Positions 27,827 to 58,999 of a DNA stretch of 61,111 bases are shown piece by piece. The notes under the pieces are model-generated. The model searched no databases. It had not been told where the DNA came from and saw only the letters and a list, made by a program, of their open reading frames with translations. The position numbers were made by a program, and so were the translations under genes. This stretch comes from Zygnema cylindricum (lineage: Eukaryota; Streptophyta; Zygnematophyceae; Zygnematales; Zygnemataceae): the NCBI GenBank assembly GCA_037447655.1, contig JBBHKE010002817.1, positions 1 to 61,111 of the forward strand, written 5' to 3'. Each line of letters opens with the position of its first letter. Position 1 is the first letter of the stretch.

Positions 27827-29752
27827 CTAGATTGGAGTTTCATGGAGTTTTTCGCTCCATGCTTTATATTGTCTAAAACAGTCCTCAGCCTCTGACTTGT
27901 TTTTCAAAAAATATACTCGGGAATACCGAGACCAATCATCAGTTATAGTCATCATAAATCTCTTCCCCCCCGGTGAGGGCACTCTAGCCAGTCCCCAAAT
28001 ATCTGTGTGTACTAGATCTAGAAGTTTTTCTCCCTTGTAGATGGCTGTTTTTGGAAAGGGTAATCTGTGTGCTTTACCTTGAGCACACCCACTACAATCA
28101 CTTATATCATCACTCTCACTGAACTGAATCCCTTCCACCACTCCCATCTTTTTCATCTCTCTTAACTTATCTAGATTCACATGCCCAAGCCTCTTATGCC
28201 ACATCATAATATCATGAACACCAGCATAATAAAGTTTCTTCGTTTCATTACTTAAGATCAGCCTAAACATCCCATGGCTACCTTTCTCAGCAATGAAATA
28301 GTCATCCTCCTCAAAACTAGCAGTAAAGACTACTTCCCTAGTGCTAGTGAAAAAACCCTTATCATCTAATACTGATGTAGAGATAAGATTTTTGTTCAGC
28401 CGCGGAATAAACAATACATCGGAGAATGTTAATATGGATGTCTTTCCTTTTACTAACACTTTCAGGTCTACCGATCCTACAAGAGTAGTGGTGACTATCC
28501 TCCCATCCCCGTACTCTATCTCTACGGTGGGAATCTTTCTTATCTTAGTGAACAGGTATCTATCCTTACACATGTGCATTGAGGCACCTGAATCTATAAT
28601 CCAGCCTGCTTCACCTTTCAATCCACCATAAGCACATTTCTGCCTTCGTGGAATTTCAACCTTAGTTTTCGCCTCCAACTCCTCATCCAAAAAGAGCTCA
28701 TCGTCCTCGTCTTCGGATTCCGCCTCAAGTACCTGTGTGACAAGGGCCTTTTTCTTTCCTCTCGGGGTACCACCGGTCTGCCCCTCCTTTAATCGAAGCT
28801 CGGTTAGCTTGGTGCACTCTGCCATATAGTGCCCCGGTTTCTTACAAAAATGACATAAACCTTTGGGAGCCCTTGGTTCGAACTCGCCAACCTGTTTTTT
28901 CTGCTCCCTACCCCCATAGTTTCCGACCGGTTTCCGGGAATCCTTGTTCCTCCAATCGGTCGCTGTTGCCAAGGCTTGGCCACTCTTTCCTCCCCTTCGG
29001 ATCTCAATCGTATTCTCTCGAACGAGAATCATCCCTACCACTGAGTTCCATATCCACCTTGAGTCAGGCAAGTCCTGCACATGGTTGACTATGTTCTCGA
29101 ACTCATCAGGTAACTTCATTAGTAAACAGTTAACTTTTTCTTTTTCACTAAAAACTTTACCCGCACTCTCTAGCTCCATGAAGAGTGTAGCAAGCTCATT
29201 GCAAAAATCCAACATATTTCCCCCTTTGTATACATACTCCTTAACTTTCTGATCAGCCAACTGTTGTTGCTGAATCGTACCACTTCGGTACATCTCTATG
29301 AGAGCCATCCAAAGATCGGATGCCCTCTCTACCTGCAAATGAGGACATGCAAGTCCTTGAGTGAGATGGCGTAGGATGAAGTGCTTTGCCGCCATATTGT
29401 TGAAGTCCCAGGTTTCAGTATCATTCTCCTCGTTCCTCGGAATAGGTGACATGAATGCTAAACCAGTTGCTATTGGTGTGGTCGCCTCCTTCTCCTTTCC
29501 TTTGTCCACCACCTCTCCTTCCTTTGTTTCCTCCGTTGAAGGTGAATCCTCTTTCCTGGTGTATCTGCTTCCTTTAAACCCTGGAGGAATTCCAAGACTT
29601 GATGGACGCCCCAATCGTCCACTCACTATCCCCCAAAACCTTTTTTCGCATAGAGCTCCTATCATCATACTTTCCCAGTATATGAAGCCAGTTCCATTAA
29701 ATATTGGCACCCTAGAGGGTGGGCCCATAACCTGAAACTCTGAGACCTCCAT
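27827..29752 (-). CDS. Copia C gag-protease-integrase(N) ORF, 641 aa
   Basis: This is the longest open frame in the window. ATG 29752 lies 20 bases inside the LTR; an alternative in-frame ATG lies within the primer-binding site (29726). The gag capsid region (residues ~10-270) includes the GFIYWESMMIGAL and VNHVQDLPDSRWIWN stretches. The CCHC knuckle CHFCKKPGHYMAEC is at about residue 305-318. An acidic EAESEDEDDELFLDEEL linker follows. The protease active site is WIIDSGASMHMC (about 383-394). Pre-integrase MWHKRLGHVNLDKL and CSGCAQGKAHRLPF come next, then MTITDDWSRYSR (first integrase Asp). It ends at one TAG just before the second catalytic Asp. Full-length Ty1/copia polyproteins are one ORF, so C is only a few lesions from intact. 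Confidence 0.93.
   Translation of the reverse strand: MEVSEFQVMGPPSRVPIFNGTGFIYWESMMIGALCEKRFWGIVSGRLGRPSSLGIPPGFKGSRYTRKEDSPSTEETKEGEVVDKGKEKEATTPIATGLAFMSPIPRNEENDTETWDFNNMAAKHFILRHLTQGLACPHLQVERASDLWMALIEMYRSGTIQQQQLADQKVKEYVYKGGNMLDFCNELATLFMELESAGKVFSEKEKVNCLLMKLPDEFENIVNHVQDLPDSRWIWNSVVGMILVRENTIEIRRGGKSGQALATATDWRNKDSRKPVGNYGGREQKKQVGEFEPRAPKGLCHFCKKPGHYMAECTKLTELRLKEGQTGGTPRGKKKALVTQVLEAESEDEDDELFLDEELEAKTKVEIPRRQKCAYGGLKGEAGWIIDSGASMHMCKDRYLFTKIRKIPTVEIEYGDGRIVTTTLVGSVDLKVLVKGKTSILTFSDVLFIPRLNKNLISTSVLDDKGFFTSTREVVFTASFEEDDYFIAEKGSHGMFRLILSNETKKLYYAGVHDIMMWHKRLGHVNLDKLREMKKMGVVEGIQFSESDDISDCSGCAQGKAHRLPFPKTAIYKGEKLLDLVHTDIWGLARVPSPGGKRFMMTITDDWSRYSRVYFLKNKSEAEDCFRQYKAWSEKLHETPI
29721..29732 (-). 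promoter_or_regulatory. Half-tRNA(iMet) primer-binding site of copia C
   Basis: GGTTATGGGCCC on the minus strand begins at 29732, immediately after LTR base 29733. With the next three bases, 15 nt are complementary to initiator tRNA-Met around residues 26-40. The ATG within it is the complement of the CAU anticodon and is in the gag frame. Confidence 0.75.
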
Positions 29753-30781
29753 AAGTCCTCAGAGTGGACAGCTTCCAAGAAGCCTCTAGGATAATCCTGA
29801 CCCCTTTGTGTTTAAGCAAAAATAACTGCCACCCTGGCAGACAAAAACTCTGACCAACTTCACCCCTGTGAAGACAAGACTCCCCTGAGTCGATAGCAAA
29901 AAGAATCTCTGAATTTGCTTCCCTGAGCAGTAAGTTATGGAGGGTCAAAGTTGACCTTTTGTACAGAAGCTCTCTGGGAGAGAGGGTCCTATCTTCTAAT
30001 TTTTCTAAGTCCTATCTCTCTCACAGACTCTATCTACTGATGTACGGAACCAATCAGAATTGAGTTCCGTACGCAAAAGTACAGCTGTCGGTGTACTTTA
30101 TGTACGGATATTGTACGACATGGCCAAAATGTCGACACATGTCAAATCCGGATTCGGTGCCATAATCTCCGGAGTTTCCACAATCCAACGGAATTTTGCC
30201 ACGCGTCATCCGATGTGGCGATGGCCACAAACCGCCGAAATCTTCCTCCGCGATCTCGGCGCTAATCCCGGCCGTCCGATTAAATTCGTCTTTAATCGTA
30301 GCCGTAATAAATACATGCGCGGTATTTGTTTCATTTACGAAACAAATGCGCGGTACTGATTTATGTCCGTACCGTAAGTCGTACATTACATATTACTGGA
30401 TCTATGTATCCCGTAATTAATTCTAGTTAAATGGTTTATCGCTTGTATACATATATAAATAATTATCAAACTATATGCTAGGTAACATTACCGCTAGATG
30501 AAACGGCTAAGGCTACCGGCTACATTGTGTCTGCCGGCCGGCAGGTACAAGGATCAAATCCTGCCGCCGGCACATACATTTTAATTAAATATATAAACCC
30601 TAATATAAAATTCCCGTAAACCTCAGGATAGCCAAGGTAGCCATGGCTCTAGCTTCCTCTCCAATTTCTCAGTGACTGCGACAAGTTTGAGAGTTGGAGA
30701 GAGAAGTTAGAGATAGACTGCCTCGACTTCTATATTTCTTTTCAGACCTAGAAAATACTAATAAAACCATTAGTTTCTACA
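29733..30781 (-). mobile_element. 5' LTR of copia C (1049 bp)
   Basis: It starts TGTAGAAACTAATGG at 30781 and ends GAGTTTCA at 29733. It pairs with the 3' LTR 24328-25378 to define a 6.45-kb element, 24328-30781. It is inserted in the gag of element B (B gag resumes at 30782). The 5-bp flanks (AGTTC at 30782, GTGAC at 24323) do not match, and B gag sequence is missing between the two flanks, so a deletion or recombination accompanied or followed insertion. Confidence 0.9.
30634..30722 (-). repeat. Conserved LTR hairpin (copia C 5' LTR copy)
   Basis: The arms are GGTAGCCATGGCTCTAGCTT... and ...GAAGTTAGAG.TAGACTGCC around a loop near GTGACTGCGACAAG. The inner arms CTCCAATTTCTCA and TGAGAGTTGGAG pair almost fully. 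Equivalent hairpins occur at 19983-20082, 20259-20347, 20817-20903, 25231-25320, 32166-32254, 49872-49960 and, degraded, about 60010-60065. Confidence 0.7.
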
Positions 30782-34322: not shown

Positions 34323-34603
34323 TGTCGAGCGTGCTAGGGAAACGCATGATAAGGGCCCATATCCAGAAATAGTCAACATCGAAGTTCTGCAAATAACCAC
34401 CAAATACGGATGCTTCCCATAATGGTGATAATGCCCATTTCTGGCCCCATCCCTCCCGTAGACATGCATGCAAAACATGGGGGACAATTGGACAAAAAAT
34501 AGAAATGAATGTATGGGAAGGCGAAAAGATATCCCCTCCCCCTTCCTTTCCCCCTCCAATCGGGAAACGGGAGTGGGTTTTTAGGAATCGAGTTCATATC
34601 CCA
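34323..34603 (-). mobile_element. 3' LTR of gypsy G1 (281 bp)
   Basis: It starts TGGGATATGAACTCG at 34603 after the polypurine tract AAGAGGGGGGGAAAT and ends CACGCTCGACA at 34323. It matches the two copies at 53550-53810 and 54115-54376. It is inserted in the copia integrase to the left. Confidence 0.75.
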
Positions 34604-37600
34604 ATTTCCCCCCCTCTTGGTCAACTATGACTAAGAAAATAAAATAATTACCCGTCAACTTCGCAGCTCCCGCAAAAACAGGTGATAGAGGTTTGAGGGC
34701 GTGGCTCCAAAGAGGAAAGAAGAAAAGATTGATGCCAACACTGGCTGCAGTTATCGCACACCAAGACGTTGCCAAGCGGAGAGGACAAGTTACAGGCGGA
34801 GGAATAAAAAGAAGGGTCGGTAAAGTAAGTGAAGTGAAAGGTGGGTTCGTCCTCCAATCCCAGAAGATGGCAAGAGGCCACATTGATTTGATTCACTTTA
34901 ATTCTTCGACCATCCTTCCCCTCGAAGGTGAGAACTCCCTTGTTAGATACCACTACCACTTTCAAAATTACCCACCTGGTAGAAATATCTAGCGTGTCCT
35001 TCTTCAGTTGCATCCGATATACAAAGTCCTCGGGCCTAAATCGCCTTTGCCTTGGCACATATTTTCCGCTCCGGCGTTGAGAGTACCACAACTAACCCCG
35101 TTGTTGAGCCGCCTGCAAATTCCCCATGGCAAGAGGCATCTCTCGGTGGAAGATTTTAGCACTCTCGGCGATCAGTTTCTCGACAATCCCCTAGTCATCC
35201 ATTTTCTGGAGGACCACCGCTTGGGTCGAGGCTACCCCGTGCAGAATGGGATGTCTTCCAAATAAAACGAAGTAAGGGCTATAGGAGTGGAGGGAAGCTT
35301 GCAGGCTATACGTGTATCCCATGGCAATCCAAGGCACCCTTCTGTCCCACTCTCCCAAATCTTTTTCAACTACATAATTCCGTAGTGACCCGTTCACTAT
35401 TTGTACGCACCTTTCGGCCAAAACGTCGGGTTGTGGGTGGTCCCAACTAGTCAGCCGATGGTCCATGAGGCATTTCTCCAAAAGATTGGTAAATTTTCTA
35501 GTATATTCGAAGCCCTAGTTGGTCAAAACCTATGTTGAAACCCCGAATTGTGATAGAACCCTCTGCAAAAAGGCATCTGCAATTGAGTTAGATTCTTTCC
35601 GGGACAGAACCACCAACTCTATCCATTGTGAAAAATATTCGATCATGACAAATATCAAGAGGTTCCCCCGTCTGCTGGACGGAAGAGGCCCCAAAAAATC
35701 TAGAGACCATCGATAAAACATCCCCCAGATGGGAAGAAAATGAAGCTCGGTTCCGCCCTTTTTGTGAAAGGTTGCCTTCACTCTATTGTAGGAAGAGCAA
35801 GTCTGTACAATTCGGTTGACTTGTGCCCCCAGCCCGTGCCACCAATAAGATCGTGTTAAAAGGGAAGTGGTCTGCTTTTGCCCGAAGTGTCTATATAGAT
35901 TATGGAGATACGTGATAGAAGTTTCTCGATTCGAGGGGGGTGGAAACAATTTCCTTTTTCCGTCGGCCCATTTTCGGAGGAAAATGCCTCAGTCCCAGTC
36001 ATACAACACCATCCGGGTCTGCACTCGGGATAATTGAACTCCAGCCAAGTGGGGAAGAGGAGATCCTTGCTGGATAGATTGTGGAGAATCGGAGTCATTG
36101 CATATGTCCTTTCGTCCGGCTCCTATAGCAGCCTGTCCCTCCACGTCTACCGCAAAAGTTGACACTTCCCCCCCAGATCGGGGAAGCGAGATTAAGACAG
36201 AAGATGCTCGAATGAGTCCCAAAGTGATCTTAATGTCCTCAATTTGCCCATCTCGGTAGAATCCAGGGTAGAGGGGTCAAGATTTCGTCTAAGTTCGTCG
36301 GCATTCCCGTGGATTTCCCCTGCCCGGTGAATAATACTGAAATCATATTCCTGTAGGATCAGAACCCATCTGGCGAGTTTGCCAGTTAAATTACTATTTC
36401 CAATGATCCATTTTAGGGGTTGATGGTCGGTAATAAGCGTGAAAAGGACCCAGTACAAATAGGGCCGAAAATGCTGAATTACCCAAAGAGCTGCGGGGAG
36501 CTCTCCATGGTAACTGCTATAATTTCCCTTCGCTTGGTTGTTGCTTCGGTTGGTGTAAGCCACCACATACTCAACCCCGGCGTCATCTACTTGAGCCAAA
36601 ATTGCTCCTAATCCAAACATGCTCCAATCAGTGTAAAGGAGGAAAGATTTTTGGTAATCAGGCATCCGGAACACGGGGTGATGTTTTAGGCCATCCTTTA
36701 AGAACTGAAAGGCAATCTTTTGCTTTTTGGCCCATTGCCATTCTTGGTCCTTCTGCAGTAATTGATTTAGGGGCCGCGGGTGACTACTGAACTCATGGAT
36801 AAGCCGCCAATAGTAGTTGGCCAAGTCCATGAATGTGCGAAGGGCCGAGATGTCGTGCGGTGGAGGAAGAGCGTCAAGGGCTGCCACCTTAACCATATGG
36901 GGGCCCACTGTCCTGGGGGTCACTTCATGTCCAAGGTAAATAATTTTTTGTTCTCCAAAAATACCTTTGCCCAGGTGACATTTCAAGCTCACTCCTTGGA
37001 GGGCCCTGAGGAGAATTTGGACATGCTCTAAGTGTTCTTCAAAGGTCTTGGAGAAGATGATGACATCATCAATATAGCACCAGGCACAATCGATTTCTTG
37101 AATAGCTTCGTCCATTGCCCATTAGAATTTGGCCAGTGCATTCTTCATCCCAAAGGGCATGTAAATCCACTCATACATTCTAGAGCCGCCCAAAATGACG
37201 TTCTCTCTCGGTGCTTCGGTTCCATGGCAATTTGGTGAAACCCATTTTTCATGTCGAGGGTGGAGTATATGGTGGCCCCAGCAAGAGAGTCGAAAATCTC
37301 TTCAGAGGTTGACATCAGATACCAGTTGGAAATGATAGCCGTGTTCAGCATGCGATAATCCCCACACATCCGAAAATCTACAATTTTCCCGGACGAGTCT
37401 TTCTTGGGACAAAGAACTGTCGGGGAAGCAAACCCATGGGGGCCGGTGCTCGGTTGAACCAATTTGGCTTCCACCAAGGTTTGGACTTTAGCCGTAATGA
37501 ACTCCTTCTCCTTCAAGCTGAGAGAATACTGTTTCTGCCAAACAGTTGCCGTCTCGTCGATCAAATCATTTCGTAAAAGGGTTCTTTTGTAGATGTCGAC

Positions 37601-37625
37601 ATCTGTTTTAGACCATGAGAACACT
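34604..37625 (-). pseudogene. Ty3/gypsy G1 RT-RNase H-integrase-PHD polyprotein remnant
   Basis: This is a gypsy pol. RT is at 37624-36850: VFSWSKTDVDIYKRT at its N edge, ASPTVLCPKKDSSGKI, IYSTLDMKNGFHQIAM and the catalytic CYIDDVIIFSKTFEEH (about 37090-37040). RNase H is at about 36650-36300: FLLYTDWSMFGLGAIL and LITDHQPLKWI. Integrase is at 35949-35190: a YRHFGQKQTTSLLTRSYWWHG zinc-binding region, WSLDFLGPLPSSRRG and ERCVQIVNGSL. A post-integrase domain (35091-34840) has FRPEDFVYRMQLKKDTLDIS, followed by a PHD-like cysteine cluster. Several stops and frameshifts are present. The 5' end is cut at 37625 by the G2 LTR, so anything before RT is unknown. RT and integrase are closely related to G3. 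Confidence 0.87.
34663..34806 (-). other. PHD-finger-like module at the end of gypsy G1 pol
   Basis: The minus-strand frame reads YSSAC...LVCDNCSQCWHQSFLL...ITCFCGSC. The spacing CDNC-x3-WH and the final C-x2-C match the PHD (C4HC3) zinc-finger plan. The first ligand is Tyr and the Cys after WH is Phe/Ser in this copy, but both are Cys in G3. It takes the place where chromoviruses carry a chromodomain. PHD fingers commonly read histone H3 tails. Confidence 0.6.
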
Positions 37626-38096
37626 TGCTATAACAGAGTACATATTTTAGTACTTAGTGGCAGGAAACTAGGCTGCTATAGTTGCGGTTGCAGAGCAGCG
37701 CAGCTGCGATTCCCTACGAGCGCAACATAGCAGCGTAGCAACGCAGTAGATTAGCGTAGCAATTTCGCAGCGCAGCATAGCAACGCTGCGGAATGTAGAT
37801 TGAAGTGTATTCTTCTAAAAAGATATTTTGGATAAATTTTGATTGACCGTGGAGGTCCACGTGTAAAATTGTACAGTAATAGGTTGACTAGCCGATAGTT
37901 AGTTTAAATAGTGGAGTAGACTTAGCACAAGGACTGACTCTTTGGGTAGACCTTCGCAGCGAGCGCTGGATGTTGTAATCACCTTCCTAGTAATAAAGCG
38001 CAACCTTTACTTGCCCTTGTGGTGTGATCTTGCTATTGCTACAAGGAGGTCCTTGGTATCCTTTGCTGTGCACTGTGGTGTTTTGTCCCTTTTACA
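37626..38096 (+). mobile_element. 5' LTR of gypsy G2 (471 bp)
   Basis: It starts TGCTATAACAGAG where the G1 frame is interrupted and ends TTTTACA at 38096, one base before a canonical primer-binding site. A GCAGCG/TAGCAACGC-rich segment occupies about 37690-37800. TATA-like and CAAT-like words are present but not assigned. Confidence 0.8.
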
Positions 38097-38097
38097 T

Positions 38098-38109
38098 TGG
38101 TATCGGAGC
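38098..38109 (+). promoter_or_regulatory. Primer-binding site of gypsy G2 (iMet 3' end type)
   Basis: TGGTATCGGAGC matches the complement of the 3' end of initiator tRNA-Met (TGGTATCAGAGC) with one difference. It is one base downstream of the LTR, the usual arrangement in plant LTR elements. Confidence 0.85.
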
Positions 38110-40824
38110 AACTCGTTGTGACTCGACAGCATCGCCGACCACGGCGTGTCCACCGCAGAAATGTTAGCGCAAGATCTACGAGAGTTAGAAAATGTTAGAT
38201 TACAGAATCTAAAAATGAGCAACAGCGTCACAACATTGGAAGCTCGTCTAGGTGAACATTCGCATGGAGGGGCAGAGAGAGACTTAAGGAGACCAAAGTT
38301 AAGACTTCCTGACGAATTTGATCCGGCCAGGCACATGAACCTTAACACGTGGTTGTTTCCATTGCAAATTATCTCAAAAAATTTCCTAGTCTATCAGACC
38401 AGGAGAAGATTCACTACGCGGGTGGTCTTCTTAAAGGAGTAGCGGGAGCATGGTGGAGGACAATGGTTGAAAACAATAAGACGCCGACGAATTGGGCTCT
38501 ATTCATCCAACTCCTCCGCAACTCTTGGCAACCTGTCAATACGATTAAGGCTGCGAGAGATAAAATTGCAGTATTGAAAAAACGAACTTCACTATTGGAG
38601 TTTACACAGCGGTTTTTGGATTGCAAGGTTCAAATACCTACGATGACGAGGATGAAGCCATGGATCGTTACGTGAAGGGGCTTAAGGCATGCATTCGTAG
38701 AGATGTGGAGCAATGGCTGGCTAGGGAAAATACACCTCCTAGTCTCTCGGCAATCATTCACTTTGTTGAACGGACCGATTCGGTAGACTTTACCTTTTGT
38801 AGACCCTACCATTATCGGTCGAGCAGTGGTGGAGGAGGTCGACGCGACAATGGTCCGACTCCCATGGAGCTCGGAGCAATTAATGAGGATAGGGAGGTGG
38901 TCAACGTGCTGCGGAAAAAGAAGAAGACTACCAAAGCCAAGACCAATGACTTGTCCCCCGAGGAGCTCCAACGGAGGAAGAAAAACGGTTTATGCTTCCA
39001 ATGCAGATCCCCGGACCATATGGCCCGAGAGTGCCCAAAACGGAGAAGTTCCAAAAAGGGCAAACTGAACGTCATGAGATTAGCAGGTGAAAGAGGAGAC
39101 CCTTTGATATTTCGAGGTCAAATCGGAGTGAGCGCAGTTAGTTTCATGGTGGACTCTGGTGCATCGGGGAATTTCATAAATGAGGTGACGATGAAAAGAT
39201 TTAAACTTCCTCTCGTGGTGCTAAGGGATCGTCAAAATATACGATTGGCCGATGGAAGTTCCTTAGCCATTACCCATCGTACTCCGAGGTTACGCGTTGT
39301 AATTGGGAGGTTCCAATGGTACGACACACTTCATGTATTAACTCTTCGAGACCATGAGGTAATCTTAGGGAAGCCGTGGCTACAAAAATGGAATCCGACG
39401 ATCGACTGGAGAAGTGGCAGCATGAGAGTGAAGAAAGGTGAAGAAGAGTTTGGGGTAAAAGCGGGAGCGGCTGGTAAGGGAGCGGAAGAGAGACGCCTAC
39501 TTTCAGCCTTACAGCTAAAGAGGGCACTCAAGAAGGGGGAGATGATTGGTATGGCGGTCGTCCAGCCTATGGAAGAGGCGAACGAGGATATTCCGGAGGA
39601 ATGGAAGAAGAAAGACTCCGACTTCGACTCAAAAGGAAGTGACGACACTACAAAAACTTCCGAAGAGGCCCCGGAAGTCGTGACAAAACTTCTCAATGAG
39701 AATGTTGATATTTTTCCCTCAAGCTCCCAGAAGGATTACCTCCGAATCGCGAGGTAGACCACAAGATAGAGCTTGTGCCCGGAGCGGTACCCGCAGCTAA
39801 TCGGATGTACAAGATGAGTAACACCGAATTAGACGAACTCAAAAAGCAACTTGTGGAGTTGGTCGAAGCCGGAGAAATTGAACTGTGCAAGTTACCGTAT
39901 GGAACCCCCGTCCTCTTCATGAATAAGAAAGATGGAGGTTTTCGTATGTGTGTGGATTACCAAGCGCTAAACAAGTTCACGGTGAAAAATGCGTACCCTC
40001 TACAAATTTTTGGATTGATTACGAGGAGTAAAATATTTTTCGAAGATAGACTTGCAAAGAGGTTATCATCAGATCAGAATTGTCGAGGAAGATGTGGAAA
40101 AGACAACGTTTAGAACTCGATAACGCCATTTCCAGTTTCGAGTTATGTCGTTCGGGTTGACTAATGCACCGTCAACTTTTAGGCATTTGATGAATTCCAT
40201 CTTTCGACAATATTTGGACGCGTTTGTAATCGTCTTTCTAGACGACATCTTGGTGTATAGCCGCACGCTGGAGGATCATATGAAGCATCTGCGGACGGTC
40301 CTGCAAGTCCTTCGGGAGAACGAGTTGTACGCAAAAAGAGGTAAATGCGACTTCTTCAAAGAGAAAATTGATTTTTTGGGCCATGTGGTGAGCCGGGAGG
40401 GCATCGCAGTGGATCCGAATAAAACCAGGGCAGTGAAGGAGTGGCCGCAGCCGGCGAACATTACAGAGTTACGAAGCTTTCTTGGATTATGCTCCTACAA
40501 TCGTCGTTTTGTTGAAGGGTTCGCACAAATTGCTGCACCACTCACGGAATTACTCAAAAATGACGTGCCCTATGAGTGGAAATTGGCGCAAGGGGTAGCC
40601 TTTAAAACGCTAAAGGAGCGGTTGGTTACCGCCCCTGTGTTAGCAGTTCTCGACCTAGACTTGCCTTGGACGATAATCACCGACGCCAGCGATACGGCTA
40701 TTGTAGCGATCCTTATGCAGGATCAAGGAAGAGGCCTCCAACCCATTGCCTACGATAGTCGAAAACTAAAGGCAGCGGAGCTTAACAAGGCCACACACGA
40801 GAAAGAAACAATCACAATCATAAA
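38110..40824 (+). pseudogene. Ty3/gypsy G2 gag-protease-RT-RNase H, 3' truncated
   Basis: Gag starts about 38146-38161 (MLAQDLRELENVRLQ, coiled-coil-like). It shifts frame near 38350 (YLKKFPSLSDQEKIHYAGGLLKG) and again near 38625 (YVKGLKACIRRDVEQWL). The CCHC knuckle CFQCRSPDHMAREC is at about 38996. The protease active site is FMVDSGASGNFI (about 39145). The frame shifts again near 39725. RT is at 39770-40480 with [36 protein letters not shown] and catalytic [12 protein letters not shown] (about 40235), then [18 protein letters not shown]. RNase H begins at [13 protein letters not shown] (about 40665). It breaks off at 40824 after KATHEKE, where an LTR starts. Integrase and 3' LTR are absent. 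Confidence 0.9.
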
Positions 40825-41260
40825 TGTTGTTTTTAGAAAGATTTAGTTCTCTCTATGCCTCAGCTGTGAGGGAGAGAGAGCTGTTCAGGACTTCAGTTAT
40901 TTTTTGGTTGAGTTCGGTTCAGTACTTACCGAAATTAGTGTGACAGTGAAGTTGGGAGTTCACGTTTCATTCACACTTAGGACACGCGTCGTCACTTGAG
41001 AGAAATGCGTGAGTATGACCTCCGTGGACGTACGGAAATTCGGCAGGACCACGGGAATTCGTGAATCGACATCACATATGTACGGTCCACTTGATACCAC
41101 GTCATCAAAATTGTGATCTCTTAAAAAAAAAGTCGGCGGACGCCGTCCGCCCTTCAAATGTACCATGACCCACTTGGCGAAATTAATCTGTACCTTCAAA
41201 TATTTTCCGTACTGAAATTGCGTCCTTTGCAATAAATGCGCCTGTCGCAAATAAAGTACA
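40825..41260 (+). mobile_element. Short LTR of family X, probably solo
   Basis: It starts TGTTGTTTTTAGAAAG, like the family A and X LTRs, and ends AAAGTACA. Its last ~220 bases match the end of the family X LTR at 14456-15435. The 20-base word at 40980-40999 is identical to 4198-4217 in the A1 LTR. No target duplication is seen. It truncates G2 RNase H. Confidence 0.5.
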
Positions 41261-53549: not shown

Positions 53550-54376
53550 TGTCGAGCGTGCCGGAGAAACACGAAAGGAGGGCCCACTGCCCGGAGTAAT
53601 CGGCATTGGAGTTCTGCAAACAACCCCCCATAATCCGAATGCTTCCCATAATAATGCTTATGCCCACAGCTGCCCACCTTTCTCCCATAAACATGCATGC
53701 AAAAAATAGGGATGAGTGCCAGGGAGGGAGAAAAGATATCTCCTCCCCCTCCTTTCCCCACTTGGCCGCGAAAAGGAATGGAATTCTTGGTAATGGAGCC
53801 GAGTTCTACATAACAGCAAAATCTAAAAGATTATCCCAAAAGTTACGTGGCGTTCCACAATGTAGACCCCAAAGTGACAGGTGGCAACTGGTCGCATGTA
53901 ACAGGAATGGTAATCTTTGTAACGCAATAACTTTGTTGTCTTGCCTCCAATAGGCGCAAAATAAAGTGCGTTCCGCTCAGTTTGGAAAATAGAAGGATCT
54001 TGTCCGGCACTGTACACTTCTTTTGCCGTATTCCGATGACCGTACAAGGGAGAAAGGGCCTAGAAATCCATGGTGATATGAAGAAGTGCCGGTAAAGCCA
54101 ACGAGCTTGACAACTGTTGAGCGTGCCGGAGAAACAAGAGAGGAGGGCCCATAGCCCGGAGTAATTGGCATTGGAGTCCATTAAAAAACCCCCCAGAATG
54201 CGAATGCCTCCCATAATAATGCCTATGCCAACTGCTGCACACCTTTTTCCCATGAACATGCATGCAAAAAATAGGGATGAGTGCCTGGGGAGGGCGAAAA
54301 CATATCTCCTCCCCCTCTTTTTCCCACCCGACCGAGAAAAGGGATGGAATTCTTGGTAATGGAGCCGGGTTACGGA
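53550..54376 (-). mobile_element. Gypsy G3 3' LTR region with internal direct repeat
   Basis: Two ~262-bp direct copies (53550-53810 and 54115-54376) each end with a CGAGCGTGC / TGTTGAGCGTGCC edge and share the CCCATAAACATGCATGC-type block. Each resembles the 281-bp G1 LTR. A 304-bp spacer between them matches part of the G0 leader. The right edge follows the polypurine tract AAGAGGGGGGGAAA. This is either a long LTR with an internal duplication, or an LTR-spacer-LTR recombinant. Confidence 0.6.
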
Positions 54377-57300
54377 TTTCCCCCCCTCTTAGTCAACTGT
54401 GACAAAGAAATAAGAATAATTACCTGCCCAATTCATAGTTCCCGCAGAACCAAAGTGCAAAAGGTTTAGGACGAGGGTCCCAAGAGCCAGGGAGGCAAGA
54501 CTGATGCCAACACTGGTCACATCAATCACAAACCACTACAAGATTCCGAGAGAAGGACGAGAGGCAACCGGAGGAACATTAATGTGGATCAGCAAAGTAG
54601 GTGAGGTGGAAAGTAGGCTCGTCTTCCAATCCCCGGATGCGATAAGGAGCTACTTTGACCTGATTTTTCCTTGATTTTCCAACCGTTCTTTTCCTTCCAG
54701 TGTCAAAAAAGCCTTATTGGAAACCTCAACCACTTTAAAGATCACCATTGGCAGCGAAATGTCCCGAGTGTCCTTTTTTTGTTGTATCCGATACACGAAA
54801 TCCTAAGGCAAAAACCACTATTGCCGCGAGACAAAATACCCGCTTCGGCATTGCGAATACTAGAGTTGATCTCGGTGCTGAGCTGCTTGTAAATTCCCCA
54901 TGGCCAGAGGCATTTCTTGGTGAAATTCCTTGGCCCTGTCGGCAATCAGTTTCTCGACCGTGCCCTTGCTGTCCATCTCTGCAAGAACCACTGCTTCGGC
55001 GGCAGTGCCGGGTAGGATTGGATGTTGTCCGAACAAGATGAAATATGGACTTTAGGAGTGGAGGGATGCTTGCCGGCTCTTTTGTACCCCATGGCAATCG
55101 AAGGCACCTTTCTAACCCATTCTCTTAAGTCCACTTCCATAGTATATATACGTAGTGACCGCTTCACTTTCTATACGCACCTTTCGCCCAAACCCTCCGC
55201 TTGTGGGTGGTCTCACTGGTCAGCCGGTGGTTGATGAGGCACAATTCCAACAAGTTGGAGAATTCTCCCGCGAATTTGGATCCTTGGTCGGTCAAAACTT
55301 TGATAAGGGCCCCAAAATGAGACAACACTCTCTGCGAGAATGCGTCTGCAATCGCCTTGGACACTTTCCGGGGTAAGACCACCAATTCGATCAACTTGGA
55401 AAAATGCTCTATCATTACCAACACAAAGTTGTTCCCTCGTCTGCTAGAGGGAAGTGGACCAAGCAGATCGAGAGACCAAAGATAATTCTTTCACCGGATA
55501 GGAAGGGAATGAAGCTGGGCACCTCCCTTTCTGTCAAAAGCTGCTTTGACGCGGTCCTGGAAAGAACAAGTCCGCACAATCAGGTTGACTAGGATCCGTA
55601 ACGCGTGCCACCAGTATGATCTTGTGACCAGGGAGGTGGTTTGTTTCTGCACGAAATGGCCACATTGTTGGTGGAGGCGAAAAATAAGAGTCTCTATATC
55701 GGCCGAGGGAGGAACCACTTTCCTTGTCCCGTCTACCCATTTATGAATAAAAATGCCTCTCTCCCATTCGTATGTCGCCATTTGAGTCTGAACTTGGGAA
55801 AACTACACTCCAAACAAATGGGAAAGAGGTAAACCTTGTTGGATAGATTGAAGTGCCTCGGGGTCATTCCAAATATCTTTCCGTTTGGCACCTACCCCTC
55901 CACATCTGCAAAGAAAGTTGACCTCCCCCCCCTAGATTGAGGAAGCCAAATAAAGGCAGAGGAAGCTCGAATGAGTCCCAATTTGATTTCGAGATCCTCA
56001 TCGTGACGGGCCACGGTGGAATCTCTAGTGAAAGGGTTAAAATTTATGCTAAGCCCGTCGGCATTACCGTGGATTTCTTCGGCCTGGTGGATTATGTCGA
56101 AATCATGTTCGTGCAGTATTAACACCTATCTGAAGAGCTTGCCAGTTAGCTTGCTATTCTCCATAATCCACTTGAGAGGTTGGTGATCCGTAATTAGAGT
56201 AAAATGAACTATGCACAGATGTGGTCTTAAATGTTGGATGGCCCAAACAGCCGCCAGTAATTCTCCGTGGTAGTTGCTATAATTCCCCTCCGTGTGGTAG
56301 TTATTTTTATTTGCGTAAGCTACCACATATTCAACCCTGGCATCATCCAGTTGAGCTTAAACAACTCCCAATCCTAACCGTCTCTAATCACTGTAAAGGA
56401 GGAAAGACCTATGATGATCAGGCATTTGGAGCACTAGGTGTTGCTTTAGCGAATCCTTCAGAAACTAGAAGAAATCTGTTGCTCCTCCGTCCACTGCCAC
56501 TCTTAGTCCTTCCGCAACAACAGGTTCAAAGGCTGAGCGTGACTGCTAAATTTTGGGATGAACCTCCGATAGTAGTTAGCCTGGCCTAAAATCATGCGCA
56601 GTGCAAAGACTTTCTAAGGAGGGGGAAGGGCATCAAGGGCTGTCACCTTGATCATATGGGGACCCACTGTCCTTGGTGTAACTTCATGTCCTAGGTAAAT
56701 ATTATTCTGCTCCCCAAAAATTCCCTTACCCAGGTGACATTTTAAGCCCGCTGCTTAGAGAGCCGGGAGTACAATCTGTATGTGCTCCAAATTTTCCTCA
56801 AAGGTCTTCGAGAAGATTATAACATCGTCGATGTAGCACCTTGCAAAATCAATTCCCTAGAGCGCCTGTCCATGACATGTTGGAATTTGGCTGGTGAATT
56901 CTTTAGCCCGAATAGCATGTAGAGCCATTCATACAACCTAGACCTTGCCCAAAATGTTGTCCTTTCTCGGTGCTTTGGCTACATTGAAATCTGGTGGAAC
57001 CCATTCTTCATGTCCAAGGTGGAATAAATGGTGGCCCTGGCCGGCAAGTCCAAAATATCTTCTGGGGTAGGCATTGGGTATTGGTCAGGTACGATTGCCC
57101 TATTAAGCATTTAGTAGTGTTCACACATCCAAATGTCTTCCGTTTTCCCAAATGAGACCTTCTTGGGTGGGAGAACAGTTGGGGACGCAAAACCATGGAG
57201 TCCAGTACCTTCCTGCAGCAATCGTACTTCCACCAAGGTTTGTACATTGGTCGTTATGAATTCCTTTTCATTAAAGCTGAGCGGGTAGTGCTTCTGCCAA

Positions 57301-57486
57301 ACAGTAGATTTCTCGTCTATTAAATTGATCCGAAAGGTGGTCCTTTTGTAGATGCCAACGTCGATGTCCGACCAGGAGAACACCTGTTTGTTTTTCTCCA
57401 ACACGTTGGAGAGCCGGGCCTTTTGCTAGGGGTCCAACTGCTCCCTTAAGGTCCAATCCATCTTCACGGGTTCCACGACCACCCAT
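54377..57486 (-). pseudogene. Ty3/gypsy G3 RT-RNase H-integrase-PHD remnant
   Basis: RT (57420-56600) has VFSWSDIDVGIYKRT, GFASPTVLPPKK, IYSTLDMKNGFHQISM and CYIDDVIIFSKT (about 56843-56807). RNase H (about 56450-56100) has the LITDHQPLKWI and YHGELLAAVWAIQHLRPHL blocks. Integrase (55781-55150) has HQQCGHFVQKQTTSL with the zinc-binding cysteine region, WSLDLLGPLPSSRRG and VLTDQGSKFAGEF. The post-integrase domain is at 55100-54650. A PHD-like cluster closes the frame. Catalytic motifs of RT and integrase remain legible, but there are stops and frameshifts throughout. Synteny with G1 is complete over RT to PHD. The methyltransferase lies directly upstream. Confidence 0.86.
54435..54578 (-). other. 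PHD-finger-like module at the end of gypsy G3 pol
   Basis: The minus-strand frame reads CSSGC, then after 11 residues CD*CDQCWHQSCLPG and later LWFCGNY. It has ligands for C-x3-C, C-x2-C, WH-x2-C and W-x-C; the last Cys is Tyr here but Cys in G1, and one internal codon is a stop. Between the two decayed copies every PHD ligand position is seen as Cys/His at least once. Confidence 0.62.
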
Positions 57487-57789
57487 GCCTCCGAGGGTCT
57501 ACCCAAGCGGGAGATATCAAATTCCAACCCTACCTATGGGTCTACTTCCCCTCCTCCTGTCAGAATGCTGATGCTAACGACTTCCGCTAAGCTATCCCCT
57601 CCCGAGCCTCTGCTCCCCCTCACTGAGGAATCCCTTGATTTGGGTGAAATTCTAGAACTGATTTTTTTTATGATAAAATTAGTCTCTTTGCCTCCCTCCC
57701 CCCCTGAAGCTGCAAGTTGGCTTGCACTGCTAACAACTATGGAGCTTGAAGGTAGCTAGCCCTTGACTGAGGAGATTGTAGGCTGGAAA

Positions 57790-58837
57790 AGGCAAGAGAA
57801 TGTTTATCACCCAAGTGATTGCATTGAGATCCATGCTCTGTCTGAGTAGGCCATACCTATTGAGGTCTGAAATACCTGGTGTTGCTGTGGTGGCATGTTG
57901 GAATCCCATTGCTTGTTCTCATTCTTCCACCGTTGGTGTTGTCCAAATTCCAATTTTGTTGTCTAATATCATTCTTGCTGCTCTTTTCTGATACGCATGG
58001 CTGTTGGGGAAGGAAACCAAAGTTGTCACGGCTCGTCGTGGTTCCCATGGTTGATTGCATTTGAAGAACGGAAGAGGATCAGCGTTGGTAACTGCAGTGG
58101 CCCTAGAAATTGTTACTGAGTAATATGGGGATCTGCTTTAAGGTTTTGTAAGAGCTGGTTTAGGATTGTCAGATGTATCAGATTGTTCCAGTAAGCCCAA
58201 AATCCGTGAGCACTGGATCCTAGTTTCGTTGCATCGAAAACAAGTGAAACCCTTAGAATCTGCTTAATTTGATTCCAGGTATTGGCGACCTGCTTTCTCT
58301 TTTAATCTCCTGGGTGAACATTTTCCAAAACATACCCCATTGGTGTGTCTTGGGACTGCTGGAAGCAAGAAGTTAATTCGATCATGTGGAAGAATGTTTG
58401 ACTTTTACTGTCCTGATGTCTCTCACCTTTCCCTACTAGAGATTATCTTTAACATGGCCATCCTCTTATTACCAGATCTACTCGCTCCAGCATAGCAAAA
58501 TGGGGTTTTATGATATTGTCTACGTTCTGTGGAAGGCTTGGGTGAGATCTGCAGATGGCGGATATTGGAAGTTGTTGGGGGTAAAATAAGTGGAGCTATT
58601 GTAGTCGGTGTTTAGTGATTGCTCCGAATCAGGTGAGATTTCCACAAGAAAATAAGACTCCACATTATATCCCGCTTTCAATACAGCCTCTAGGTCTAAG
58701 CTAATTCTAGAGAATAGGGATACTATCCGGAGTCCGAAATCCGGAATTGATAATGACACCACTTGTCGATGAATTTTTTTATTTCCTACTAGAACCTCCG
58801 AAGATTTCGACCGAGGCTTTTTCTCCTTGGCAAACAC
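57790..58837 (-). pseudogene. Cytosine-5 DNA methyltransferase (DNMT3/DRM-like) in gypsy G3
   Basis: This is a roughly 320-codon C5-methyltransferase domain read in order on the minus strand. Motif I is LRIVSLFSRISLDLEAVLKA (about 58738-58680), followed by YFLVEISPDSEQSL (motif II-like acidic end). After a frameshift near 58525 comes VDLVIRGWPC (motif IV, catalytic Cys codon near 58452), then a stop where Gln is expected, and a glycine-rich SLVGKGERHQDSKS. Motif VI is MGYVLENV (ENV at 58317-58325). Motif VIII is FDATKLGSSAHGFWAYWNN (about 58240-58185). The target-recognition/IX-X region is PRRAVTTLVSFP, then QAMGFQHATTATPG and SMDLNAITWVI (57834-57810). The family transfers methyl from SAM to cytosine C5. 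Motif order is non-permuted. Two or three frameshifts and four or so stops make this copy inactive. It sits directly before the RT linker, collinear with pol, so it is part of the element rather than a captured host exon. Confidence 0.8.
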
Positions 58838-58999
58838 AACTACGAAGGACTAGTGTAGTTCCTACCGAAGTGTTGCTATCTATGTTAATCTGCTCTAGTA
58901 TCCATTTTCCCACCGCTTGGAAATAGGGAATTGCTATATAACATCTGCAATATCGGTAGCACTAGCGAGCAGCTTAAAACTCCGTGTGCTCCATTGCCC

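What the first reader, a model, noticed from the sequence alone, without database searches (positions are those of the whole stretch)
57790..58837. A Ty3/gypsy retrotransposon that carries a cytosine-5 DNA methyltransferase
Motifs I, IV (GWPC), VI (LENV), VIII (AH....YWNN) and the IX-X tail (AMGF..TTATPG, MDLN) occur in the correct order and spacing on the same strand, directly upstream of the gypsy RT. The GWPC-x-x-x-S-x-x-G-x-G...D.x.S spacing fits C5 methyltransferases even though the Gln codon is now a stop. Retroelement-borne cytosine methyltransferases have, to my knowledge, been reported in a few lineages such as dinoflagellates and charophyte algae. A gypsy copy in this genome could let the element write its own chromatin state.
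Basis: partly seen in the sequence, partly recalled or inferred. Interest (0 to 1): 0.95.

Follow-up and report, generated by a model that had tools for sequence, protein, structure and literature searches.

The report
Jumping gene carrying DNA-methylating enzyme
The window holds the decayed remains of a plant or algal jumping gene that carried its own enzyme for marking DNA, and the same genome holds many other copies, some with unbroken reading frames, that also carry a small domain of a type that usually reads histone marks.

Summary
A DNMT3-type cytosine-5 methyltransferase, broken by stops and frameshifts, lies at 58849-57800 (minus). It is in one element with a gypsy-type RT, RNase H and integrase: 58959-54380 aligns in one piece (72%) to another copy elsewhere in the genome.

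In the 353-Mb assembly PF00145 gave 782 candidates; the 123 scored all pass the cut-off. Of 23 other methyltransferase loci fetched, 18 have RT downstream on the same strand and 15 have methyltransferase, RT, RNase H, integrase and a terminal PHD finger in that order. Some frames are unbroken.

Repeats in three copies run A-coding-B-A-B, as reported for KnitGypsy-Dnmt3 of Klebsormidium nitens.

So the kind is published (de Mendoza 2018); this is a new variant, in two families. Self-methylation of cDNA and chromatin-guided integration are inferred. The window copy is dead. The host is a green plant or alga, otherwise unidentified.

The parts
58934..58936 (-). in-frame TAG followed by CAATTCCC, the gag-protease/pol junction of the family
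   Evidence: sequence
57800..58849 (-). DNMT3-type C5 methyltransferase, broken by stops and frameshifts
57430..57799 (-). linker between methyltransferase and RT
   Evidence: within the single alignment
56600..57425 (-). reverse transcriptase, broken
56050..56470 (-). RNase H, broken
   Evidence: 76% to a relative copy
55491..55802 (-). integrase zinc-binding domain (H2C2)
   Evidence: PF17921 1.2e-8
55164..55490 (-). integrase core (rve)
   Evidence: PF00665 1.9e-8
54420..54578 (-). PHD finger at the end of pol
   Evidence: PF00628 1.8e-5, 25.1 bits, cut-off 24
54380..58959 (-). extent of pol of copy A that aligns in one piece (72%) to a copy on another contig; 5' of it another repeat begins
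34493..37627 (-). second, truncated copy B: RT to PHD, 70.9% to copy A, ends inside the RT N-terminus, no methyltransferase left
34663..34797 (-). PHD finger of copy B, in one frame with the integrase tail; below Pfam cut-off
54115..54371 (-). 257-bp direct repeat, 87.5% to 53550-53805, just after pol; may be what is left of the 3' repeats, not shown
53550..53805 (-). second copy of that direct repeat

Best explanation
The feature is a dead copy of a multi-copy retroelement with a Ty3/gypsy-type pol, in a green plant or alga, whose pol begins with a DNMT3-type cytosine methyltransferase. Shown: the order gag-protease, in-frame UAG, methyltransferase, RT, RNase H, integrase, PHD finger, with A-coding-B-A-B repeats in some copies. 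Inferred, most likely mechanism (about 0.4 for the whole chain): ribosomes mostly stop at the UAG and make Gag-protease; occasional readthrough makes Gag-Pol, so the methyltransferase is made and packaged at pol level. In the particle or pre-integration complex it methylates the new cDNA. The PHD finger on the integrase tail then binds a histone tail and steers insertion, as chromodomains are thought to do in chromoviruses (recalled). The new copy would arrive already marked, in chosen chromatin.
For: Domain identity. One continuous alignment of the window copy to another copy from methyltransferase to PHD. Order complete in 15 of 23 other loci. Unbroken frames of 1520, 1525 and 2239 aa. Purifying selection on the methyltransferase (dN/dS 0.12-0.26, five comparisons; RT-RNase H 0.08-0.21, three; linker 0.49-1.21, five). 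Methyltransferase and RT trees show the same three clades. TAGCAATT junction in 18 of 20 loci and the window. DNMT3A best among solved structures, E 2.8e-14 (M.HhaI 6.3e-5, DRM2 about 0.002; DNMT1 and DNMT2 not listed at 0.01).
Against: No activity, readthrough or histone binding was tested. The 23 loci were chosen for holding the methyltransferase, so they do not tell how many RT copies lack it; the RT search for that did not complete. Eight of 23 lack the complete order, some with no RT. The methyltransferase dN/dS values share one reference and include two pairs identical in this domain, so about three are independent; only unbroken frames were used. Frameshift-tolerant scoring of the decayed copy favoured M.HhaI (85) over DNMT3A (75); no tree with reference DNMTs or reference RTs was built. 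PHD scores of the three unbroken family-1 frames and of copy B are below Pfam's cut-off. CpG depletion (0.62-0.64 in family-1 frames) is not special: an ordinary copia copy in the window has 0.58. A 4-bp flanking duplication is seen by eye in one of two copies. In print the K. nitens gypsy enzyme gave no methylation in yeast, called inconclusive.
Confidence: 0.7

Rival explanations
1. A gypsy element landed by chance beside a host DNMT3 gene or pseudogene, so the linkage is an accident of this place.
For: The window is full of nested insertions, and copy B in the same window has no methyltransferase.
Against: The same order recurs in 15 of 23 other loci on other contigs, unbroken frames hold both domains, and the window copy aligns across the joint in one piece. 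Copy B is truncated inside RT.
Confidence: 0.02
2. The methyltransferase is a passenger carried along without any use to the element.
For: The window copy is dead; loci without RT exist (5 of 23); activity of the gypsy-type enzyme is unproven in print.
Against: dN/dS 0.12-0.26, near that of RT and far below the linker; congruent clades; key motifs conserved between families at 36-40% identity, though family 2 has GWECQG.
Confidence: 0.12
3. The enzyme acts on something other than the element's cDNA: host chromatin in trans, RNA, or as a brake on retrotransposition that spares the host.
For: De Mendoza 2018 lists such roles as open; no direct evidence here.
Against: Position at the start of pol, after a UAG, places it in Gag-Pol and so probably in the particle.
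Confidence: 0.25
4. The terminal PHD-like finger is only a structural or nucleic-acid-binding zinc finger, not a histone reader.
For: Family-1 scores are weak (16-21.5 bits in copy B and three unbroken frames, against a cut-off of 24).
Against: C4HC3 spacing in the alignments; family-2 fingers score 38-44 bits; window copy 25.1 bits.
Confidence: 0.3

Closest known systems
KnitGypsy-Dnmt3 of Klebsormidium nitens (de Mendoza et al. 2018, PMC5890265)
   Same: Dnmt3-type, unrearranged methyltransferase inside a gypsy pol ORF under purifying selection; repeats arranged as in DIRS with gypsy domains (text and legend of Fig. 4).
   Different: Here a PHD finger ends pol (the word PHD does not occur in that paper's main text; figures and supplement not seen), a UAG separates gag-protease from pol in family 1, two families coexist, one with GWECQG in motif IV. 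Sequences could not be compared.
SymbioDIRS-Dnmt3 and SymbioLINE-Dnmt of Symbiodinium (same paper)
   Same: Retroelements that took up cytosine methyltransferases; many copies.
   Different: DIRS with tyrosine recombinase, or LINE; here an rve-type integrase.
Chromoviruses (gypsy elements with an integrase chromodomain; recalled, chromodomain named as accessory domain in PMC6338049)
   Same: A chromatin-binding type of domain after the integrase.
   Different: PHD finger instead of chromodomain; no methyltransferase in chromoviruses as far as I recall.
Plant DNMT3 and DRM host genes (Yaari et al. 2019, PMC6453930, passages seen)
   Same: DNMT3-class catalytic domain.
   Different: Host genes with other partner domains; DRM has rearranged motifs, here the order is I to X.

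Membership tests
C5 cytosine methyltransferase (PF00145) | profile match over cut-off; motifs I, IV, VI, VIII, X in order | tested here: met
   (motif names recalled)
DNMT3 class | closer to DNMT3 than to DNMT1, DNMT2, DRM or bacterial enzymes | tested here: inconclusive
   unbroken copy: DNMT3A far ahead; decayed window copy: DNMT3C/3A best by phmmer but M.HhaI above DNMT3A in the frameshift-tolerant test; no tree with references
Ty3/gypsy-type pol | RT, RNase H, then integrase (H2C2 and rve) on one strand | tested here: met
   no RT tree with references
Ordinary LTR retrotransposon | a complete long terminal repeat at each end | tested here: not met
   A-coding-B-A-B in the 3 copies whose 5' flank was compared; no repeat of 60 bp or more inside L009, L016, L024
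KnitGypsy-Dnmt3-like element | Dnmt3-type domain inside gypsy pol | tested here: met
KnitGypsy-Dnmt3-like element | DIRS-like split repeats | tested here: met
   3 of 3 family-1 copies compared; not shown for the window copy or family 2
KnitGypsy-Dnmt3-like element | sequence kinship with the K. nitens element | not testable with these tools
   protein database switched off
PHD finger (PF00628) | C4HC3 and profile match over cut-off | tested here: met
   window copy 25.1 bits and family 2 (38-44 bits) over cut-off 24; copy B and three unbroken family-1 frames under it
Programmed stop readthrough | conserved in-frame stop between two coding frames | tested here: met
   18 of 20 loci plus the window; L011 keeps TAG but not CAA, L014 has none
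Programmed stop readthrough | measured readthrough product | not testable with these tools
   needs a reporter

The most novel reading that the evidence does not exclude
The element carries both a writer and a reader of chromatin: the DNMT3-type domain methylates the new cDNA while a PHD finger on the integrase tail picks the insertion chromatin, both made at pol dose through UAG readthrough. Family 2, with GWECQG in place of GWPCQG and little CpG depletion (two frames only), would be a natural variant with altered or lost methylation.
Probability: 0.3. Interest if true: 0.75.

Novelty: new variant of a known kind. Interest (0 to 1): 0.5.

Why it matters
Retroelements are normally targets of DNA methylation. 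One that brings its own de novo methyltransferase, together with a putative histone reader on its integrase, turns the question of why a retroelement would methylate DNA into something testable in a genome with many copies, two families and a natural motif-IV variant. It also extends the KnitGypsy-Dnmt3 kind to what is very probably another green host (no sequence comparison with K. nitens was possible) and, to judge by the searches made, adds a combination with a PHD finger that I did not find in print.

Tried and rejected
Chance motifs: rejected. Chance neighbourhood: rejected. DRM-type enzyme: rejected, motif order is I to X and DRM2 scores far lower. Structure prediction of the methyltransferase: mean pLDDT 44.7, not used. 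Window direct repeat 54115-54371 / 53550-53805 as the B repeats of the family: not shown, since it aligns to sequence outside B in L023. Viral contigs: no relatives (16 pattern matches, none confirmed; none). Rfam on the window: no match. Weak MASE1 match not taken as real. LEAFY (SAM_LFY) as host marker: no match, uninformative by the tool's own note. Dirigent and an RT census of the genome: not completed. Folding 110 nt after the UAG in six copies shows a stem near the stop in L009, L016 and L024, but not the same one in the others; not used as evidence.

Literature seen: PMC5890265 first two of seven parts, sections 10 and 11, passages; passages only of PMC12344493, PMC6338049, PMC9998398, PMC6453930, PMC8708638, PMC12477816, PMC9033089; the rest as search listings.

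Full report
Observation. Read in one frame with X at stops, the stretch carries a PF00145 match above the curated cut-off (25.2 bits, E 1.3e-5; the other two frames none). A frameshift-tolerant alignment scored 75 against DNMT3A (100 shuffles: 34.5 +/- 5.2, max 54; 40 shuffled proteins: max 46) and 85 against M.HhaI (34.8 +/- 3.7, max 47; shuffled proteins max 51), the best of 186 tiles of the window in both cases. With an unbroken copy as probe the window methyltransferase reaches E 3.8e-70 at 55% identity, RT 1.2e-89, RNase H 1.7e-61, integrase 1.7e-86 and PHD region 9.5e-26, in this order on the minus strand.

Anatomy of the window copy. Pol of copy A runs from about 58959 to 54380 and aligns as one piece (72%) to a copy on another contig. 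It begins with an in-frame TAG at 58936-58934, then methyltransferase, linker, RT, RNase H, H2C2, integrase core, and ends with a PHD finger (PF00628 25.1 bits, cut-off 24). Upstream of 58959 other repeats take over: 58997-59287 matches the flank of another locus and 59195-59613 matches sequence next to a copia copy. So gag and protease of this copy are missing. Copy B (34493-37627) has RT to PHD and is cut inside the RT N-terminus; the two copies are 70.9% alike. Both are old and dead.

The family in the genome. The assembly has 352,776,454 bases in 2689 contigs. PF00145 gave 782 candidates, 123 were scored and all 123 pass the cut-off; host DNMT exons may be among them. I fetched 20 loci of the window's type and three of a second type, all chosen by methyltransferase match. 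Of these 23, 18 have RT downstream on the same strand, 16 a PHD region, and 15 methyltransferase-RT-RNase H-integrase-PHD in order; L014, L015, L021, L022 and L027 have no RT in the stretch, L011, L017 and L020 lack later parts (two loci supplied the probes). Unbroken pol frames of 1520 and 1525 aa (family 1) and a gag-pol frame of 2239 aa (family 2) exist. Methyltransferase and RT trees give the same three clades: family 2 (L029-L031), subfamily 1b (L015, L018-L021, those present in each tree), and 1a with the window copies; many inner branches are unresolved. This fits one old acquisition.

Enzyme class. The unbroken methyltransferase matches DNMT3A at 2.8e-14, DNMT3C at 6.6e-12, DNMT3B at 1.4e-9, M.HhaI at 6.3e-5 and DRM2 at about 0.002; DNMT1 and DNMT2 are not among the 48 sequences listed at 0.01. 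The decayed window copy is closest to DNMT3C by phmmer, but M.HhaI beats DNMT3A in the frameshift-tolerant score. I call it DNMT3-type, without a reference tree. Family 2 has GWECQG where family 1 has GWPCQG.

Selection. dN/dS for the methyltransferase is 0.12-0.26 in five comparisons with one reference (about three independent, since L016/L017 and L010/L011 are identical here), RT-RNase H 0.08-0.21 in three, linker 0.49-1.21 in five. More distant pairs were saturated. The linker serves as an inner control.

UAG junction. TAGCAATT stands between the protease frame and the methyltransferase frame in 18 of 20 family-1 loci and in the window copy; L011 has TAG followed by TAA, L014 nothing comparable. 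It is kept between subfamilies 1a and 1b, whose synonymous sites are saturated. UAG-CAA-UU resembles the tobacco mosaic virus type of readthrough context (recalled; the paper passages seen do not give it). In family 2 protease, methyltransferase and RT are in one frame without a stop (L030).

PHD finger. Family 2 fingers score 38-44 bits, the window copy 25.1, copy B and three unbroken family-1 frames 15.7-21.5 under a cut-off of 24. The Cys4-His-Cys3 pattern is visible in most copies listed.

Repeats. In three copies whose 5' flank was fetched the order is A-coding-B-A'-B' (A 91-97% alike). A second B lies downstream in L010, L012, L013, L019, L023, L025 and, larger, L026. A starts TGTCAAGC and B ends CTCGACA or CTTGACA; B and A' are joined by two bases (GC or AC) in seven copies, while L009, L016, L024 and L028 have a single B. 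A 4-bp flanking repeat, TTGT, is seen in L025 but not in L013. This is the repeat arrangement that de Mendoza et al. describe for KnitGypsy-Dnmt3.

Host. 88 light-harvesting matches, and the protein from L040 has its best single-domain matches among plant chlorophyll a/b proteins (which ones are Lhcb3 of pea and Arabidopsis is recalled; the top row is a multi-domain protein of 620 aa). So the host is green. Land plant or streptophyte alga is undecided.

Comparison and verdict. The closest published thing is KnitGypsy-Dnmt3 (PMC5890265). Same: Dnmt3 in gypsy pol, DIRS-like repeats, purifying selection. Different as far as seen: PHD finger, UAG junction, two families, GWECQG variant. Searches for a gypsy element with Dnmt3 and PHD returned none that I recognised as such in the listings. 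The mechanism (packaging through readthrough, cDNA methylation, PHD-guided integration) is inferred. CpG depletion is no proof: 0.62-0.64 in family 1 and 0.89-0.92 in family 2, but an ordinary copia copy shows 0.58 and another gypsy 0.98.

Noticed in passing
38000-41000: A different, younger-looking gypsy element on the + strand with zinc knuckle, protease and RT, CpG obs/exp 0.98.
   Followed up: no
L029, L030, L031: Second methyltransferase-bearing gypsy family with GWECQG at motif IV and a strong PHD finger.
   Followed up: partly
L009, L016, L024, L028 against L010, L012, L013, L019, L023, L025, L026: Two end structures coexist: a single B, or B-A'-B' joined by a constant two-base spacer.
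   Followed up: partly
27827-29758: Copia gag-pol part as one unbroken 643-aa frame, with several other copia copies in 2.6-30 kb.
   Followed up: no
L009 from 3014, L016 from 2883 and L024 from 3351 (oriented): A stable stem a few bases after the UAG in these copies; other copies fold differently.
   Followed up: partly
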